Positions 2,990 to 56,357 of a stretch of 64,000 nt of DNA are shown piece after piece. Both the position numbers and the translations under genes were made by a program. Below the pieces are notes generated by a model. That model made no database searches. It was not told the DNA's origin and saw only the letters and a list, made by a program, of their open reading frames with translations. Origin of the DNA: Elusimicrobiota bacterium (lineage in GTDB: Bacteria > Elusimicrobiota > Elusimicrobia > Elusimicrobiales > UBA9959); the NCBI GenBank assembly GCA_026388155.1, contig JAPLKI010000025.1, positions 284,931 through 348,930 on the forward strand, given 5' to 3'. Numbering within the stretch: position 1 is the stretch's first letter; each line of letters starts with the position of its first letter.

Positions 2990-3006
2990 GAATCAGGTTG
3001 GTAAAT

Positions 3007-3086
3007 GCCATATGCTTTAAGCCATATGCCATAGGCTTGCAAGGAACTCCTTAAAAGCATATGGCTTAAGGCATACGGCTTAAAGC
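3007..3086. repeat. Intergenic hairpin, word family GCCATAAGCC, AAGGAACTCCTT centre
   Basis: Left arm words GCCATATGC, AAGCCATATGCC and ATAGGCTT face right arm words AGCATATGGCTT, AAGGCATACGGCTTAA across the centre GCAAGGAACTCCTT. Closely related hairpins are at 35586, 37631, 38103, 49302 and 56193. Sits between xerC and topA. Confidence 0.85.
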
Positions 3087-5418: not shown

Positions 5419-5473
5419 AAGGCTGGCTGCGACTATTGGGTGGGCAATTTAGATGTATCGTAAAAAGGGCGGG
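5419..5473 (+). repeat. Leader repeat, copy 1 (before element A)
   Basis: Reads AAGGCTGGCTGCGACTATTG, then GGTGGGCAATTTAGATGTATC, then GTAAAAAGGGCGGG. Near-copies precede element B twice (23697 and 23792), and an inverted copy precedes the structured region upstream of mtaB (20705-20748). An A+T-rich patch follows each copy, so it could be a shared promoter region or one end of a mobile element. Confidence 0.7.
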
Positions 5474-5523: not shown

Positions 5524-5657
5524 GGGGTGGCGAGGGTGTGGGTTCGGAGGGCCTTCACGCAGACCGAGGCTTGCGCAGCGCCGAGGCCGAGTGGTGAGGC
5601 GCGCGCACTGTGTGCGCGACGCCGTGCCCTCCGGGCCCACACCCTCGACAGGCCCCC
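5524..5657 (+). ncRNA. Structured GC-rich element A (candidate novel RNA)
   Basis: Nested helices: GAGGGTGTGGG (5532-5542) pairs perfectly with CCCACACCCTC (5636-5646); CGGAGGGC (5545-5552) pairs with GCCCTCCG (5626-5633); a central hairpin CGCGCAC-TGT-GTGCGCG (5602-5618) is closed by GGCG/CGCC with a bulged A. Flanking single-strand-like motifs GGGTGGC (5') and GACAGG (3') are conserved in elements B, C and D. Helix positions change in a compensated way between copies. Strand is assigned from the leader repeat and could be wrong. A shared tail (CCAAAGCCA...ACCCGGCGTT, 5678-5711) also recurs after element B. No known RNA family recognised. Confidence 0.6.
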
Positions 5658-5724
5658 AACCAACATATATACTTCAACCCAAAGCCATAAACCCGGCGTT
5701 ACAATTTCTAAAAAAAGTTGAAGG

Positions 5725-18973: not shown

Positions 18974-19050
18974 AGTAATCGGTAGCCGGTAATCCGTAAC
19001 CAGTGTGAAAGACCACCTTTACAACCGCTTACCGGTTATTGGTTACGGCT
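18974..19050. repeat. Intergenic hairpin, word family GGTAACCGGTAAC
   Basis: AGTAATCGGTAGCCGGTAAT, CCGTAACCAG on the left; AACCGCTTACCGGTTATTGG, TTACGGCTT on the right. The same words occur at 51629-51667. Between mtaB and the Pro-rich protein gene. Confidence 0.75.
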
Positions 19051-20391
19051 TCCCGCTCCCACAACTTCCCCGAGGCAACAGCCGCTTTCGGCGCCTGTAA
19101 TTTTTACATTGTAAAGCCCGCCAGGTTCAAGGCGGCCCTCCACGGAGATATTTAAAAAATTATCAGCCAGCCCAAGCGAGCGGCTTGCCCCGCCCTTTTG
19201 GGGAAAGCTGCCGGTGTGGAATATATCGGCGGGAGGGTTAAGCTCCGCTTCCCGGGCCAAAAGGGCGGGGTCCGCCTGATTTTTGAGTATAAGAACTTCA
19301 AGCTCTCCGCCTATCATGGAGGCCGCGAAAACGGCCCTTAGTTCCGCATCCAGTTCATGCAGCGCGGCTGAGCGGGCTTTTACGATTTGGGGGCTAAGCG
19401 GTTTAAGGGACGCGGCCGCGGTGCCGGGCCTGCTTGAATAGCTGAAAATATGCAGCCCGGAAAACTCACAGCGCTTTATAAACGCCAGTGTGTCGTCAAA
19501 ATCTTGCAGGGTTTCGCTGGGGTAGCCGGTTATAACGTCGGTGTAAAGACCCGCGCACGGAAAAACCGCCCTTATAAAGCCGACTTTACACAGGTAAGAG
19601 GCCGTGTCATAGGGGCGGCGCATCTCTTTTAAAACCTTGTCCGAACCGGACTGCAGGGGCAGGTGAAAATACGGGCAGAATTTTTTCCCGCCGCGCGCGA
19701 GGATCGTCATCAGACCCTCGGAAATCTCCATCGGCTCGAGCGAAGAGAACCTTAAACGGAACTCGCCTGGAAGTGCCAGCAGGCGCTCCATTAAACCGCC
19801 CAGATCAAGGCCGGTTTCAGGGCAGTTATACATGCCAAGCCGCGTGCCGCAAAGCACTATTTCTTTAAATCCCGCCATGATCAGATTTTTAATTTCATTT
19901 TCAGCCGCCAAAGCGGGCTTTGAACTTATAGAACTGCGCGCTTTGGGAACCAGGCAGTAACTGCATACCAGATTGCAGCCATCCTGCAATTTCACAAAAG
20001 CCCGCGTGCGACCTTCAAAACGGCTTACGGCGAAAGCATCGGGCTTGAAAGGCGCGCCGCAAAGTTCGAATGGGATCTTTTCTTTGTCGGTGTTGTTGAA
20101 AATAAGCGCGGCGGGCGCGATGGAAAGTATTTTTTTGGGGTCAAGGGTGGCCAGGCAGCCGGTGACGGCTATGCGCGCTTTGGGGTTTGAGCCGGCTATC
20201 TTTTTAAGGAATTTTACGGCGTCGCGATCGGCGTATTCGGTGACGCTGCAGGAATTGATCAGTACCAGGTCCGCCGAAACCAGGTCCGAGGTGGCGCTGT
20301 GCCCCAGGGCGGCGAACTTTTCAAGCAGGCTCTGAGTTTCCACCTGATTAACGCGGCACCCAATGGTTTTAAAGTAAACTTTCACCCCCAC
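19036..20391 (-). CDS. mtaB: tRNA t6A37 methylthiotransferase MtaB
   Basis: 451 aa radical-SAM methylthiotransferase that makes ms2t6A at tRNA position 37. The N-terminal UPF0004 domain has FKTIGCRVNQVETQSL and further Cys at NSCSVTEYAD and VTGCLA. The radical-SAM Cys triad is GCNLVCSYCLVPKARS. TIGCRVNQVET is the MtaB rather than MiaB form. The C-terminal TRAM domain is split: after GGELEVLILKN comes a ~30-residue insert (~373-402) encoded by palindromic element S2, then SLGLADNFLNISVEG continues the domain. Start is a GTG; the next in-frame GTG two codons later is also possible. Upstream lies a 270-bp structured region on the same strand. Confidence 0.9.
   Translation of the reverse strand: MGVKVYFKTIGCRVNQVETQSLLEKFAALGHSATSDLVSADLVLINSCSVTEYADRDAVKFLKKIAGSNPKARIAVTGCLATLDPKKILSIAPAALIFNNTDKEKIPFELCGAPFKPDAFAVSRFEGRTRAFVKLQDGCNLVCSYCLVPKARSSISSKPALAAENEIKNLIMAGFKEIVLCGTRLGMYNCPETGLDLGGLMERLLALPGEFRLRFSSLEPMEISEGLMTILARGGKKFCPYFHLPLQSGSDKVLKEMRRPYDTASYLCKVGFIRAVFPCAGLYTDVITGYPSETLQDFDDTLAFIKRCEFSGLHIFSYSSRPGTAAASLKPLSPQIVKARSAALHELDAELRAVFAASMIGGELEVLILKNQADPALLAREAELNPPADIFHTGSFPQKGGASRSLGLADNFLNISVEGRLEPGGLYNVKITGAESGCCLGEVVGAGSRNQ
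19184..19272. repeat. Palindromic element S2, inserted in frame in mtaB
   Basis: ~89 bp; ends TTGCCCCGCCCTTTTGG and CCAAAAGGGCGGGGTCC are inverted repeats. Minus-strand translation PALLAREAELNPPADIFHTG, then SFPQKGGAS, matches S1 residue for residue at PALLA, N-x-P-x-D, T-x-S and PQK-x-G-x-S. The insertion falls between two TRAM-domain strands, where a loop could absorb it. Confidence 0.88.
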
Positions 20392-20414: not shown

Positions 20415-20690
20415 GAAGTAAGGAGAGCCGATGGGTTCTCCGCGCGCTCCAATACTTGTGTAGGTGCCGTATCAAGGACGGTGTCCATCAGACGGCCAAG
20501 ACCGGGTTTTTGGGTGGTAAGTCCGGGGTCCTCCGCCGGCTCCGGAACGCGCCGGCCCGCACAGCGGTCCGGCTTGAACGGTCCTCGCCGTCCCTCATGG
20601 TAGGGATACGCTCCAGACCCCGGCCTTAAAATCCTACAAGGAGCGCGCGAAAAACCCGCCGGCTCTTTCTTATCTCTTAATTGTGAAAAT
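20415..20690 (-). ncRNA. Structured region upstream of mtaB (candidate RNA E)
   Basis: Read on the minus strand: GAGCCGGCGGG...CGCGCGCTCC (20641-20665) closes with GGAGCGCGCG...CGGCTC (20423-20450); CTTGTAGG pairs with CCTACACAAG; CCGGGGTC pairs with GACCCCGG. A TATAAT (20702-20697) sits just upstream, after an inverted leader repeat. It may be an independent RNA or the mtaB 5' leader. On the plus strand GGTAAGTCCGGGG and AGACCCCGGCCTTA resemble the RNase P P4 strands, with the same nesting order, but it is too short and lacks other conserved blocks, so I do not call rnpB. Confidence 0.4.
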
Positions 20691-20696
20691 TTTTTT

Positions 20697-20702
20697 ATTA
20701 TA
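20697..20702 (-). promoter_or_regulatory. Candidate -10 (TATAAT) for RNA E / mtaB
   Basis: Perfect TATAAT on the minus strand, 12 bases or so ahead of the closing helix. The -35 is weak (TGTCAA at 18 bp). It lies directly downstream of the inverted leader repeat. Confidence 0.35.
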
Positions 20703-20704
20703 AT

Positions 20705-20748
20705 GTCCCCCGCCCTTATTTTGACACTTCTGATTTACCCACCCATTA
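20705..20748 (-). repeat. Leader repeat, inverted copy
   Basis: On the minus strand ATGGGTGGGTAAATCAGAAG then TGTCAAAATAAGGGCGGGG, matching the leader copies at 5419, 23697 and 23792 in order and spacing. It precedes RNA E in the same way the others precede elements A and B. Confidence 0.6.
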
Positions 20749-20800
20749 GGAGGTGACGGGTGATTTTTTTGTATTATGGTCTTTTACGCGGAGTATGATT

Positions 20801-21466
20801 ATGAAAAATAACGAAAGACCTTCATTATGGCAGTTGTTCAGGGATGAATTGCATCGAGAACATAAAGGGATGGCCGCGTATACCCGTCTGGGAATAGTTT
20901 CATATTACGCGATATTGGTGATTTTTACTTTTATTGAAAAAATTGCTTCTACCGAAGGCTTTTTTATCGGTATGGGCAGGATATTGGCGGTGGCTGTCCT
21001 TGTTGCTCTCTTCATGTTTTCCACCAGTGAAAGCTCCGTAAGTGATATAGAAGGCACGCTCAATGAAGGGAACGGCGGAGGTTATACGGACTGGTTGTGG
21101 CACCGGGCCAGTCTGGTTCTGTTATTGGCTTCGCTCATCGCAACAGCGTACGAATTTTACAGGGGCAATATCTGGGGCGGGGTGCTCTATCTTGGCTATC
21201 CGGCGTGGAAGTGCTGGTTAATGCTTGAATTGCGCAGGACGCGCATATCCCACGCAATGATACGCACCTGGCGTGGCTGGCGGACGGTTCTAATGGTTTG
21301 CGGGACCGGGGCCGCGATTTTTGCGGTACTGCTGTTCTTAACCGGCGGCGGGCCATACCTGCCGACGACCATTAGGATCCAGATCTATCCCGCCGGGCTT
21401 ATTGTCTGTCTGTTAGGAGTTGTTTTTTCCGTCATCGCCGCCGGCGACGACTTGCTCTTACCTTAA
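20801..21466 (+). CDS. Multi-pass membrane protein, unknown family
   Basis: 221 aa from the ATG at 20801, which has GCGGAG seven bases upstream; a GTG at 20753 overlaps a second AGGAGG and would add 16 residues. About six hydrophobic segments are visible: SYYAILVIFTFIEKI, ILAVAVLVALFMF, ASLVLLLASLIATAY, WGGVLYLGYPAWKCW, VLMVCGTGAAIFAVLLFL, IYPAGLIVCLLGVVFSVIAA. No transporter, enzyme or receptor motif is seen. It is alone on its strand, between RNA E and the restriction-modification genes, and ends at a hairpin terminator (21492-21512). Confidence 0.65.
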   Translation: MKNNERPSLWQLFRDELHREHKGMAAYTRLGIVSYYAILVIFTFIEKIASTEGFFIGMGRILAVAVLVALFMFSTSESSVSDIEGTLNEGNGGGYTDWLWHRASLVLLLASLIATAYEFYRGNIWGGVLYLGYPAWKCWLMLELRRTRISHAMIRTWRGWRTVLMVCGTGAAIFAVLLFLTGGGPYLPTTIRIQIYPAGLIVCLLGVVFSVIAAGDDLLLP

Positions 21467-23623: not shown

Positions 23624-23668
23624 AAAAAAGCTATTTTTGAAGTTTTTTGGGAAAATTAGAGGGAATTC

Positions 23669-23689
23669 AAAGGTAGCGTCTACCTTTTT
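23669..23689. terminator. Hairpin AAAGGTAGCGTCTACCTTT, copy 2
   Basis: Same hairpin as 21492-21512, on the other side of the restriction-modification pair and again preceded by GGGAATTCAA. It starts a ~95-bp unit that is tandemly repeated. Confidence 0.75.
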
Positions 23690-23850
23690 GCCGTTTAAGG
23701 CTGGCTTCGACCGACGGGTGGGATATTGTGATGTATCGTGAAAAAGGGCGGGGATATTTATGAAAAGGTAGCGTCTACCTTTTTGCCGTTTAAGGCTGGC
23801 TTCGACTGACGGGCGGGATATTGTGATGTGTCGTAAAAAGGGCGGGGCTA
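23669..23850 (+). repeat. Tandem pair of hairpin + leader units
   Basis: Two ~90-bp units, period 95 (hairpins at 23669 and 23764; leaders at 23697-23753 and 23792-23846). Each reads hairpin, then TTGCCGTTTAAGGCTGGCTT, then a GACGGGYGGGATATTGTGAT stretch and AAAAAGGGCGGGG. They are nearly identical, so the duplication is recent. Confidence 0.85.
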
Positions 23851-23905
23851 TTTATATTTTTAAGGAAGCGCCGGGGGATAGGCCCAAGAAAGGTGATAAG
23901 CCAAG

Positions 23906-24033
23906 GGGTGGCGAGGGTGCGGGTTCGGCGGGCCTTCACGGAGGCCGAGGCTTGCGCAGCGCCGAGGCCGAGTGGTGAGGCGCGCGCACTGTGTGCGCGA
24001 CGCCGCGCCCGACGGGCCCGCACCCTCGACAGG
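23906..24033 (+). ncRNA. Structured GC-rich element B (candidate novel RNA)
   Basis: Outer helix GAGGGTGCGGG (23913-23923) pairs with CCCGCACCCTC (24017-24027). Compared with element A one T-A pair has become C-G on both sides. The central hairpin CGCGCAC-TGT-GTGCGCG with bulged A, the 5' GGGTGGC and the 3' GACAGG (24028-24033) are conserved. Its tail (CCAAAGCCACTCAACCCGGC, 24103-24122) matches the tail of A. Two leader repeats precede it. Confidence 0.6.
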
Positions 24034-24070
24034 CCCCCGCACTTTTTCCAACGGAGGCCAAAGTGCGGGG
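24034..24070. repeat. Hairpin CCCCGCACTTT, copy in element B tail
   Basis: Perfect 11-base stem CCCCGCACTTT / AAAGTGCGGGG. It is absent from element A at this position. A related, slightly decayed copy lies upstream of the pilin gene (61961-61999), so it is a separate dispersed hairpin. Confidence 0.7.
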
Positions 24071-35563: not shown

Positions 35564-35585
35564 AATGGATGCGACCGAACTGCAC

Positions 35586-35669
35586 TAAGCCATATGCCGT
35601 ATGCCTTAGGCCATAAGCTTGTTAAGGAATTCCTTTAAGCCTATGGCGTATGGCTTAAGGCTTATGGCA
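35586..35669. repeat. Intergenic hairpin, GCCATAAGC family, AAGGAATTCCTT centre
   Basis: TAAGCCATATGCCGTATGCC and TTAGGCCATAAGCTTG face AAGCCTATGGCGTATGGC and TTAAGGCTTATGGCA. The centre is the perfect palindrome AAGGAATTCCTT. Between the 81-aa gene and a BMC-H gene. Confidence 0.9.
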
Positions 35670-35680
35670 GTCCCCTATGA

Positions 35681-35977
35681 CTAACTGACTTTTACGGATA
35701 TTCTGGCCATATACTTATCCAGGTCGTCATGCGGCCGCGGAATGACATGAATGGCCACAAGTTCGCCGACTTTCTGCGCGGCGGCTCCTCCGGCTTCAAC
35801 AGCGGCCCGCACCGCACCCACTTCGCCCGTGCAAAGCGTAGTAACATAGCCCGAGCCTATTTTTTCATAGCCTATAAGGCGCACATTGGCGGCCTTGGCC
35901 ATGGCGTCCGACGCCTCTATCATGCCTATGAAGCCCTTTGTTTCGATCATTCCCAACGCTGGTTTCGGTTCTGACAT
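35681..35977 (-). CDS. BMC-H hexameric shell protein
   Basis: 98 aa from [15 protein letters not shown], preceded by AAGGAGCAAAAC; a longer frame starts in the hairpin. Single BMC domain: [40 protein letters not shown] with the pore-loop [16 protein letters not shown] and a C-terminal VIPRPHDDL. Forms flat hexamer tiles of the shell. Its closest visible relative is the BMC-H at 41200. Confidence 0.95.
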
Positions 35978-37329: not shown

Positions 37330-37611
37330 TTATCGCTTTATGTATACCTTATCAACTATGCCGGCCACCACTGTGCGAACCGGCGCCTTGGAATTTTTTA
37401 AAATTTTACGGGCGGAGCCGCCCTCGTCAACTATAAGCACGGTGTCACCCACGCCCGCGCCCTGGTTCCCGTCCACGGCAAGCGTCGCCTCACCTGTCAG
37501 CTTGCCAGGGACTGAAACATCCACCGCTTTCACAATAAGCAAGGTGGCGTTTTTAAGCCCCGCGTGCTTGCGGGTGGCCCAGACATTGCCGATAACTTTA
37601 GCGATGAACAT
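37330..37611 (-). CDS. eutN: BMC-P (EutN/CcmL) pentameric vertex protein 1
   Basis: 93 aa. MFIAKVIGNVWATRKHAGL, then LLIVKAVD, VDGNQGAGVGDTVLIVDEGG and AGIVDKVYI are the EutN/CcmL blocks. Pentamers close the twelve vertices of the shell. One of three BMC-P paralogues in this locus. Confidence 0.93.
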   Translation of the reverse strand: MFIAKVIGNVWATRKHAGLKNATLLIVKAVDVSVPGKLTGEATLAVDGNQGAGVGDTVLIVDEGGSARKILKNSKAPVRTVVAGIVDKVYIKR

Positions 37612-37630
37612 AATTTATTGGTACGGCTAT

Positions 37631-37741
37631 TGCCATATGCTTAACGCCATAGGCCATCACTGCCATAAGCCTTAAGCCATACGCCATAGGCTTAAAGGAA
37701 TTCCTTAACAAGCTTATGGCTTAAAGCGTACGGCATATGGC
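37631..37741. repeat. Intergenic hairpin, GCCATAAGC family, AAGGAATTCCTT centre
   Basis: TGCCATATGCTTAACGCCAT, ATAAGCCTTAAGCCATACGC and CATAGGCTTAAAGG on the left; CCTTAACAAGCTTATGGC and TTAAAGCGTACGGCATATGG on the right. The longest left arm of the family; a further copy of the word (GCATGGCTTATGGC) follows to 37770. Between two BMC-P genes. Confidence 0.88.
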
Positions 37742-38083: not shown

Positions 38084-38102
38084 AAAATTTTGATACATCC
38101 AT

Positions 38103-38183
38103 TGCCATAAGCTTTAAGCCTTATGCCATAAGCTTGTCAAGGAGTTCCTTAAAAGCTTACGGCCTAAAGCATACGGCATATGG
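38103..38183. repeat. Intergenic hairpin, GCCATAAGC family, AAGGAGTTCCTT centre
   Basis: TTGCCATAAGCTTTAAGCCT and TATGCCATAAGCTTG face AAAGCTTACGGCCTAAAGC and ATACGGCATATGGC. Between BMC-P and the RpiB-like gene. Confidence 0.88.
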
Positions 38184-38189
38184 CGATTC

Positions 38190-49278: not shown

Positions 49279-49301
49279 AAGATAATTTTACAATATAAGA
49301 C

Positions 49302-49383
49302 TGCCATAAGCTTTAAGCCGTATGCTATATGCTTTTTGTTAGGAATTCCCTCAGAACTTATGGCCTCCGGCGTAGGGCATATG
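49302..49383. repeat. Intergenic hairpin, GCCATAAGC family, decayed centre
   Basis: TGCCATAAGCTTTAAGCCGT and ATGCTATATGC face AACTTATGGCCTCCGGCG and TAGGGCATATG. Centre TAGGAATTCCCT. Between divergent or unlinked genes, just left of element C. Confidence 0.75.
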
Positions 49384-49508
49384 ACGCGGCCGCAACAGCC
49401 GCATGACCTGCGCGCGTCACAATAGAAGTGTTTAGCGTATAATTTTTGCCATTTTCAATAGGCAAAATATGATTTGGAAGGATAAGCCCCTGGCGATGTA
49501 GATGGAGC

Positions 49509-49634
49509 GGGTGGCAGGGGAGCCGGATAAGCGGAACCGTCCGGAGGCCGAGCATACGAAGCGCGGAGGCCGAGGAATGGAGGCGCGCGCACGGTGTGCG
49601 CGACGCCGGTTCCGCGTTCCGGGCCCCTGACAGG
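49509..49634 (+). ncRNA. Structured GC-rich element C (candidate novel RNA)
   Basis: CAGGGG (49515-49520) pairs with CCCCTG (49624-49629); CCGGA (49523-49527) with TCCGG (49618-49622); GCGGAACCG (49531-49539) with CGGTTCCGC (49607-49615); the central CGCGCAC-GGT-GTGCGCG hairpin with bulged A is as in A and B. GGGTGGC (5') and GACAGG (3') are conserved, and GATAAGC sits unpaired between helices, as in D. It lies upstream of ytxH, on the same strand, 60 bp before that promoter. Confidence 0.6.
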
Positions 49635-51667: not shown

Positions 51668-51713
51668 GTCCTTTCGGATTCTCCGTCGGTTCCCTGTTGG
51701 GACCAAATGGAGC

Positions 51714-51840
51714 GGGTGGCGGGGAAGCTGGATAAGCAAAACCCTCCGGAACCCGACGCTTGCATAGCGCGGAAGGCGAGGATGGGAAGGGCGGGCACGG
51801 TGTGCCCGACCCTGGTTTTGCGTTCCAGTTCCCCGACAGG
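51714..51840 (+). ncRNA. Structured GC-rich element D (candidate novel RNA)
   Basis: GGGGAA (51721-51726) pairs with TTCCCC (51829-51834); CTGGA (51728-51732) with TCCAG (51824-51828); GCAAAACC (51736-51743) with GGTTTTGC (51814-51821); central hairpin CGGGCAC-GGT-GTGCCCG with bulged A. Relative to C, several helix pairs changed on both sides (G-C to A-T in the third helix; C-G to G-C in the central hairpin). GGGTGGC, GATAAGC and GACAGG are unchanged. Strong evidence of a conserved fold. Confidence 0.65.
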
Positions 51841-56192: not shown

Positions 56193-56302
56193 TGCCATAA
56201 GCAAAAGGTTGCCATAAGCTTTAGGCCGTAAGCCATAGGCTTTACAAGGAAGTTCCTTTACGGTTATTTCTGCGTATGGCCTATGGCGTATAACCTATGG
56301 CA
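56193..56302. repeat. Intergenic hairpin, GCCATAAGC family, AAGGAAGTTCCTT centre
   Basis: TTGCCATAAGCAAAAGG, TTGCCATAAGCTTTAGGCC and GTAAGCCATAGGC on the left; GCGTATGGCCTATGGCG and TATAACCTATGGCAA on the right, around CAAGGAAGTTCCTTT. Between the Cld-family gene and glgC. Confidence 0.88.
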
Positions 56303-56357
56303 ATAGCCGTATCTAAAACTTACGTCTTAAGACAGGCAACTTTCCAGGGAGAAATTT

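What the first reader, a model, noticed from the sequence alone, without database searches (positions are those of the whole stretch)
20415..20750. Structured region E shares its leader with elements A and B but has another fold
On the minus strand, leader repeat, TATAAT and then a closed multi-helix region up to mtaB. In A and B the same leader precedes the plus-strand fold. If the leader is a promoter, this would be one promoter-like module driving different structured RNAs. The plus strand shows a loose likeness to the RNase P P4 strands with the right nesting.
Basis: partly seen in the sequence, partly recalled or inferred. Interest (0 to 1): 0.55.

Follow-up and report, generated by a model that had tools for sequence, protein, structure and literature searches.

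The report
Dispersed structured RNA element, shared leader
This stretch is one of about twenty scattered copies of an undescribed structured element that shares its front end with a differently folded element and recurs in two bacterial phyla; copies differ between close relatives, so it looks like a small mobile element that is made as RNA.

Summary
On the minus strand a 36-nt leader (20709-20744) and a TATAAT (20697-20702) precede a closed, branched fold (20420-20668). Of 39 leader-pattern hits in the genome, 29 are leader-like; 8 precede the E fold and 18 the A/B fold. E is no known RNA: no Rfam family matches, and rnpB lies elsewhere. It is one of 20 full copies here, found in 24 of 37 genomes of its family, 0 of 24 of a sister family, and, by a second model, 35 of 193 Omnitrophota genomes. 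Covariation is very strong (61 of 69 pairs changed on both sides), and G-U exceeds A-C on the leader strand 126:37, so that strand is probably the one folded. Copies are gained and lost between congeners, including E itself, have no common neighbour gene and show no target-site duplication at the closing stem. Best reading: a non-autonomous, mobile, transcribed structured element, comparable to BOX/ERIC repeats but a new family, with exchangeable folds behind one leader. Promoter activity, transcription and the mobilising enzyme are not shown. E carries a 47-nt REP-like insert.

The parts
20709..20744 (-). Leader repeat GGGYGGG-N22-GGGYGGG (36 nt)
20697..20702 (-). TATAAT hexamer after the leader (possible -10)
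   Evidence: read; weak enrichment over 45 leaders; no sigma-70 site
20420..20668 (-). E element: closed branched fold, 249 nt with insert
20640..20668 (-). Closing stem P1, 5' arm
20420..20450 (-). Closing stem P1, 3' arm
20628..20635 (-). P2, 5' arm
20501..20511 (-). P2, 3' arm
20615..20627 (-). P3, 5' arm
20519..20531 (-). P3, 3' arm
20590..20609 (-). Apical hairpin 1
   Evidence: coordinates read
20573..20579 (-). GTTCAAG, 5' side of the conserved internal loop
20551..20572 (-). Variable hairpin 2, replaced wholesale between copies
20545..20550 (-). GCGTTC, 3' side of the conserved internal loop
20451..20497 (+). 47-nt repeat inserted in E (GTAG then hairpin on the + strand); solo and tandem copies elsewhere
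19036..20391 (-). MtaB-like MiaB/RimO-family methylthiotransferase gene downstream of E
   Evidence: over the subfamily cut-off, 341.2 bits against 357.05 for MtaB itself
20753..21466 (+). Divergent open reading frame, no NCBIfam family
5438..5473 (+). Leader before A
5527..5660 (+). A fold (different from E)
5679..5700 (+). Tail CCAAAGCCATAAACCCGGCGTT after A
23716..23752 (+). First leader before B
23811..23846 (+). Second leader before B
23903..24038 (+). B fold, 94% identical to A

Best explanation
E is a copy of a non-autonomous, mobile, structured element. The shown steps: it is dispersed, its leader is shared with a second fold, its secondary structure is kept by compensatory change, and copies come and go between congeneric species. 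The inferred steps: the leader starts a transcript; that transcript, read in the leader direction, folds into a long closing stem with a branched head and is needed for spread or persistence of the element; an enzyme supplied from elsewhere mobilises leader plus fold; and recombination or template switching between copies exchanges the fold behind the leader. The resident copy at mtaB is probably dispensable.
For: 20 sense copies in this genome; 24 of 37 genomes of its family and 0 of 24 of a sister family. Covariation: 79 distinct copies, 95.9% of cells paired, 61 of 69 pairs changed on both sides, 870 such cells against 124-206 in slid controls; separately in Omnitrophota 38 of 45 pairs, 443 cells against 43-67. 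Strand: G-U 126 against A-C 37 in the closing stem under a strand-neutral alignment, 46 copies against 7, also 192:73 over the whole fold. Turnover: the site of copy L075 is continuous in both congeners; E itself is a remnant in G001 and absent in G002; L083 is a remnant in G002 and not found beside its flank in G001. Fold exchange at the MFS-groEL gap. No common neighbour gene around 29 copies.
Against: No mobilising gene was found bracketed by the element; the five inverted pairs whose open reading frames were listed enclose ordinary genes. No target-site duplication at the closing stem: repeats of 4 nt or more in 9 of 77 copies against 7.5 in the control. No transcript data. No sigma-70 site by scan. 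In Omnitrophota the inner helices show no strand bias (26:23), and the outer stem only 66:44, p 0.09. C-to-T bias on a transcribed strand could give the same G-U excess without selection. Some copies are retained: L076 in both congeners and the groEL-side copy in G001.
Confidence: 0.55

Rival explanations
1. A multi-copy trans-acting ncRNA gene family with a host function, each copy driven by the leader; copy-number change is gene birth and death.
For: Strong covariation and a nearly invariant loop (TGTYTGA/GAGTT in 34 and GTTCAA/GCGTT in 38 of 83 Elusimicrobiota rows; TGTYTGA/GAGTT in 36 of 56 Omnitrophota rows), strand bias, leader linked to most copies, some copies retained between congeners.
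Against: 13 of 37 family genomes have none by the model; turnover within the genus; in orthologous pairs broken pairs outnumber compensations (0 compensations and 3 breaks; 4 and 6); only 1 to 12 copies in the Omnitrophota genomes that have it, and 158 of 193 with none.
Confidence: 0.25
2. A plain DNA-level MITE: the stems matter only as inverted repeats, and RNA is irrelevant.
For: Long closing inverted repeat, about 200 nt, intergenic, dispersed; in one Omnitrophota genome three copies lie inside a larger inverted-repeat unit, with 8-9 nt direct repeats at two of them by eye and the core inverted in the third.
Against: Inner hairpins covary as strongly as the ends; G-U over A-C asymmetry; no duplication at the closing stem; in several relatives a conserved tail continues past the stem.
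Confidence: 0.14
3. A cis-regulatory 5' leader of mtaB.
For: E ends 29 nt upstream of mtaB and is on the same strand.
Against: Neither congener has an intact E before mtaB; the other copies have unrelated neighbours, the downstream one on the opposite strand in 12 of 18 own copies.
Confidence: 0.03
4. A diverged copy of a known RNA (RNase P, 6S, tmRNA).
Against: No Rfam match above chance for E or diverse relatives; rnpB found elsewhere at 195.9 bits.
Confidence: 0.01

Closest known systems
BOX elements of Streptococcus pneumoniae (PMC3049150, passages seen)
   Same: Dispersed, modular, tightly folded, transcribed in some cases, convergent intergenic places, insertion of short extra modules.
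   Different: BOX has terminal repeats that duplicate their target, few related hosts, and no shared leader in front of unrelated folds; here copies occur in two phyla, and no duplication was found at the closing stem.
ERIC and Correia/NEMIS elements (PMC2229807, passages seen)
   Same: Small non-coding mobile elements of 100-200 bp with a long stem closed by end pairing; some carry promoters.
   Different: Branched head with a conserved internal loop, strong two-sided covariation, exchangeable folds, external leader.
GTAG-tagged REP elements and RAYT transposases (PMC3733652, abstract seen)
   Same: The 47-nt insert reads GTAG followed by a hairpin and is dispersed; three REP-transposase-like genes are in the genome.
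   Different: 47 nt rather than 20-40; the genes score 57.9-72.2 bits against a cut-off of 80 and have no copy of the insert within the fetched 1.5 kb flanks. E itself is far larger.

Membership tests
MITE | Small (under about 200 bp), non-coding, dispersed, intergenic | tested here: met
   197-206 nt cores, 20 copies; leader and tail make the unit larger
MITE | Terminal inverted repeats | tested here: inconclusive
   29-bp closing stem, but leader upstream and tail downstream lie outside it
MITE | Target-site duplication | tested here: not met
   at the closing stem of 77 copies; the outer ends of leader and tail were not tested
MITE | Mobility shown by filled and unoccupied sites | tested here: met
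   L075 site unoccupied in two congeners, one site with both flanks
MITE | Parental transposon with matching ends | not tested
   only Y1 transposases were looked for; no other transposase family was searched
GTAG REP (for the 47-nt insert) | GTAG tag at the foot of a 20-40 bp palindrome | tested here: inconclusive
   GTAG and hairpin read directly; 47-nt unit
RNase P RNA | Match to the RF00010 model or conserved P4 core | tested here: not met
6S RNA and tmRNA | Match to Rfam models; tRNA-like part for tmRNA | tested here: not met
Cis-regulatory RNA of mtaB | Conserved upstream of the gene in relatives | tested here: not met
   remnant in one congener, absent in the other
Trans-acting ncRNA | Transcription as a separate RNA | not testable with these tools
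   no expression data

The most novel reading that the evidence does not exclude
A bacterial SINE-like system: one promoter-bearing leader is coupled to interchangeable, covarying RNA folds that spread through an RNA (or single-stranded) intermediate, with fold exchange by template switching, kept up across Elusimicrobiota and Omnitrophota.
Probability: 0.18. Interest if true: 0.88.

Novelty: new variant of a known kind. Interest (0 to 1): 0.6.

Why it matters
Small dispersed repeats are usually described as simple hairpins with terminal repeats. Here is a family whose whole branched fold, including hairpins far from the ends, is kept by compensatory change, with a bias that singles out one strand, and which sits behind a leader shared with another fold. 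It occurs in two phyla known mostly from metagenomes and is absent from Rfam release 15. If the RNA drives its own spread, it would be a bacterial counterpart of SINEs; if it has a host function, it is a new multi-copy ncRNA class. The two readings are separable by RNA-seq and by a transposition assay.

Tried and rejected
RNase P, 6S and tmRNA: no Rfam match above chance, rnpB elsewhere. Regulation of mtaB: neither congener keeps an intact E there. A transposon with E at both ends: the inverted pairs in relatives looked like composite elements, but the genes between are ordinary. Target-site duplication at the closing stem: none. RAYT bracketed by the 47-nt repeat: none within the fetched flanks. 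Viral contigs: 0 matches to the strict pattern. A common tail for all units: found 4 times in this genome, 3 of them with at most one mismatch, so it does not bound every copy. Cross-phylum alignment A5 is wrong in the 5' half for Omnitrophota and was not used for pair counts; a separate model was built instead. Literature: listings showed no paper on such an element in Elusimicrobiota or Omnitrophota; the whole-word setting made two stems unmatchable, so that call says little. The library holds open-licence papers only.

The 17 loci were chosen by a pattern that contains part of the conserved loop, so conservation of those letters in them is no evidence; the counts use model hits, though model R2 was itself built from such loci.

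Full report
Setting. The window lies in a 3.36-Mb genome of 25 contigs. E lies between an MtaB-like gene on the minus strand (19036-20391; over the MiaB/RimO subfamily cut-off, just under that for MtaB) and a divergent open reading frame without a family match.

The observation. On the minus strand come the leader (20709-20744), TATAAT (20697-20702), and a closed branched fold (20420-20668) that ends 29 nt before mtaB. The minus strand folds at z -5.9 and the plus strand at z -4.1. No Rfam family reaches its gathering score in the window; at E up to 10 the region gives three matches, all far below the gathering scores.

The leader and its folds. The pattern GGGYGGG-N18-30-GGGYGGG has 39 hits in this genome. 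By length and inner motif 29 are leader-like. Downstream of these the script assigned 18 to the A type (GGGGTGRC...CAGG-CCC closing) and 7 to E; one of the four left open, C14:26673, is an E copy with an insert by the covariance model, giving 8 E and 18 A, with 3 unassigned. The E model does not match A or B. Two leaders with near-identical following sequence, one before an A fold (L061) and one before an E fold (L110, a congener), can be seen. At the MFS-groEL gap this genome has an A fold where the congener G001 has an E fold; the right flank matches at 84% and the left only by a 19-nt stretch, E 0.04.

The fold. In 11 own copies RNAalifold gives 69 pairs, 31 of them with two-sided changes. 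With 79 distinct copies from ten genomes, 95.9% of cells pair, 61 of 69 pairs have two-sided changes and 870 cells carry them; sliding the partners gives 41-52% and 124-206 cells, and none of 500 shuffles reaches the observed values. The shuffles do not keep relatedness. The apical hairpin is replaced wholesale between copies while staying paired. Next to it lies a conserved internal loop in two forms: TGTYTGA/GAGTT in 34 and GTTCAA/GCGTT in 38 of 83 rows, neither by the strict pattern in 11. E has the second form.

Strand. In the sense direction G-U outnumbers A-C 192 to 73 over the whole fold, 40 pairs against 15. Because the model could favour G-U, I aligned the two arms of the closing stem with a strand-neutral score: 126 G-U against 37 A-C in 75 copies (shorter or poorly paired copies were dropped), 46 copies against 7, the rest ties. 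So the leader strand is the folded one, by selection for the RNA or for one single DNA strand, or by C-to-T bias on a transcribed strand; the last would still mean transcription of this strand.

Distribution. 20 full sense copies in this genome, 2 fragments and 17 antisense echoes of the palindrome make up the 39 matches. Of 61 relatives 24 have it: 24 of 37 in the family, 0 of 24 in the other family of the order. An exact pattern in 84,980 species genomes gave 17 stretches: 6 in Elusimicrobiota, 10 in Omnitrophota, 1 in an unnamed bacterium; none in viral contigs. A model from nine Omnitrophota sequences finds 35 of 193 Omnitrophota genomes, up to 12 copies with 12 candidates scored, and 56 of its copies show 38 of 45 pairs with two-sided changes. 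By eye the Omnitrophota copies lack the GGGYGGG leader. The strand bias is absent in their inner helices (26:23) and weak in their outer stem (66:44).

Turnover. Upstream of mtaB, G001 has a short 3' remnant of E plus other repeats, and G002 has no element. Flanks of seven other own copies were sought in G001 and G002. The site of L075 is continuous in both, so that about 320 nt of leader remnant, E and following sequence are extra here. L076 is present in both. L083 is a remnant in G002 and not beside the matched flank in G001. L080 is not beside the matched flank in either, and L074 and L092 are not in G001; these last rest on one flank. L079 gave only a short unrelated-looking match. Two orthologous pairs of copies show 0 compensations with 3 broken pairs, and 4 with 6: resident copies decay.

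Neighbours and ends. Around 29 copies no gene type recurs; in 18 own copies the upstream gene points toward the element in 13 and the downstream gene points against it in 12 (a simple open-reading-frame caller). At the closing stem no target-site duplication is seen: 9 of 77 with 4 nt or more against 7.5 in re-paired controls. In several relatives a tail continues past the stem. In one Omnitrophota genome three copies lie within a larger inverted-repeat unit; the core is inverted in one of them relative to the flanks, and two have 8-9 nt direct repeats outside, read by eye.

How it most likely works. Shown: dispersal, shared leader, exchange of fold at least by linkage, maintenance of the fold, strand bias, turnover. 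Inferred: the leader is a promoter; the transcript folds; the folded transcript matters for spread or persistence; an enzyme from elsewhere mobilises it. The promoter step is the weakest: no sigma-70 site by scan, and TATAAT-like hexamers after 23 of 45 leaders against 11.3 in shuffles.

Comparison. Small mobile repeats such as BOX, ERIC and Correia elements are the nearest known kind (PMC3049150 and PMC2229807, passages; PMC10969869, passages). E shares size, dispersal and a closing stem, but failed the duplication test where I could place the ends, so it is not filed as a MITE. The 47-nt insert in E resembles a GTAG REP (PMC3733652, abstract); three REP-transposase-like genes are in the genome, all under the curated cut-off.

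Verdict. The finding is real and better than described: a new family of structured dispersed elements with a leader shared by unrelated folds. Its transcription and mechanism remain to be tested.

Noticed in passing
window 20451-20497; G000:C14:65098-65193 and C10:284574-284672: A 47-nt repeat (GTAG plus hairpin on the window + strand) inserted in E, in about 20 further places and in head-to-tail pairs with a 47-nt period.
   Followed up: partly
L259, L271, L272 (Omnitrophota genome G063): The E-like core sits in opposite orientations within the same larger inverted-repeat unit; 8-9 nt direct repeats flank two of the units by eye.
   Followed up: partly
window 23666-23690 and 23757-23784; L060, L066, L013: Palindrome AAAGGTAGCGTCTACCTTT recurs just upstream of leaders.
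   Followed up: no
L042, L048, L052, L055, L061 (downstream of leaders): A further structured unit of about 100 nt (TGGGGTTGCTCTGGAGCC...GGGCAACCCCA) is nested inside A-type hairpins or stands alone after a leader.
   Followed up: no
L010, L013, L050 and window 24038-24070: A small palindrome (CCCCGCACTTTTTCC...GGCCAAAGTGCGGGG) is inserted inside or beside leaders.
   Followed up: no
window 3001-3086, 35574-35741, 37608-37741, 38098-38184, 49297-49385, 56205-56325: Arrays of GCCATAAGCTTTAAGCC-like short repeats in inverted pairs between genes.
   Followed up: no
G015:C61, G015:C98, G015:C114, G025:C27, G001:C51: Pairs of E copies 1.1-2 kb apart in diverging orientation enclose one or two ordinary genes.
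   Followed up: partly
window 49502-49608 and 51707-51814: Further relatives of the A/B fold.
   Followed up: no
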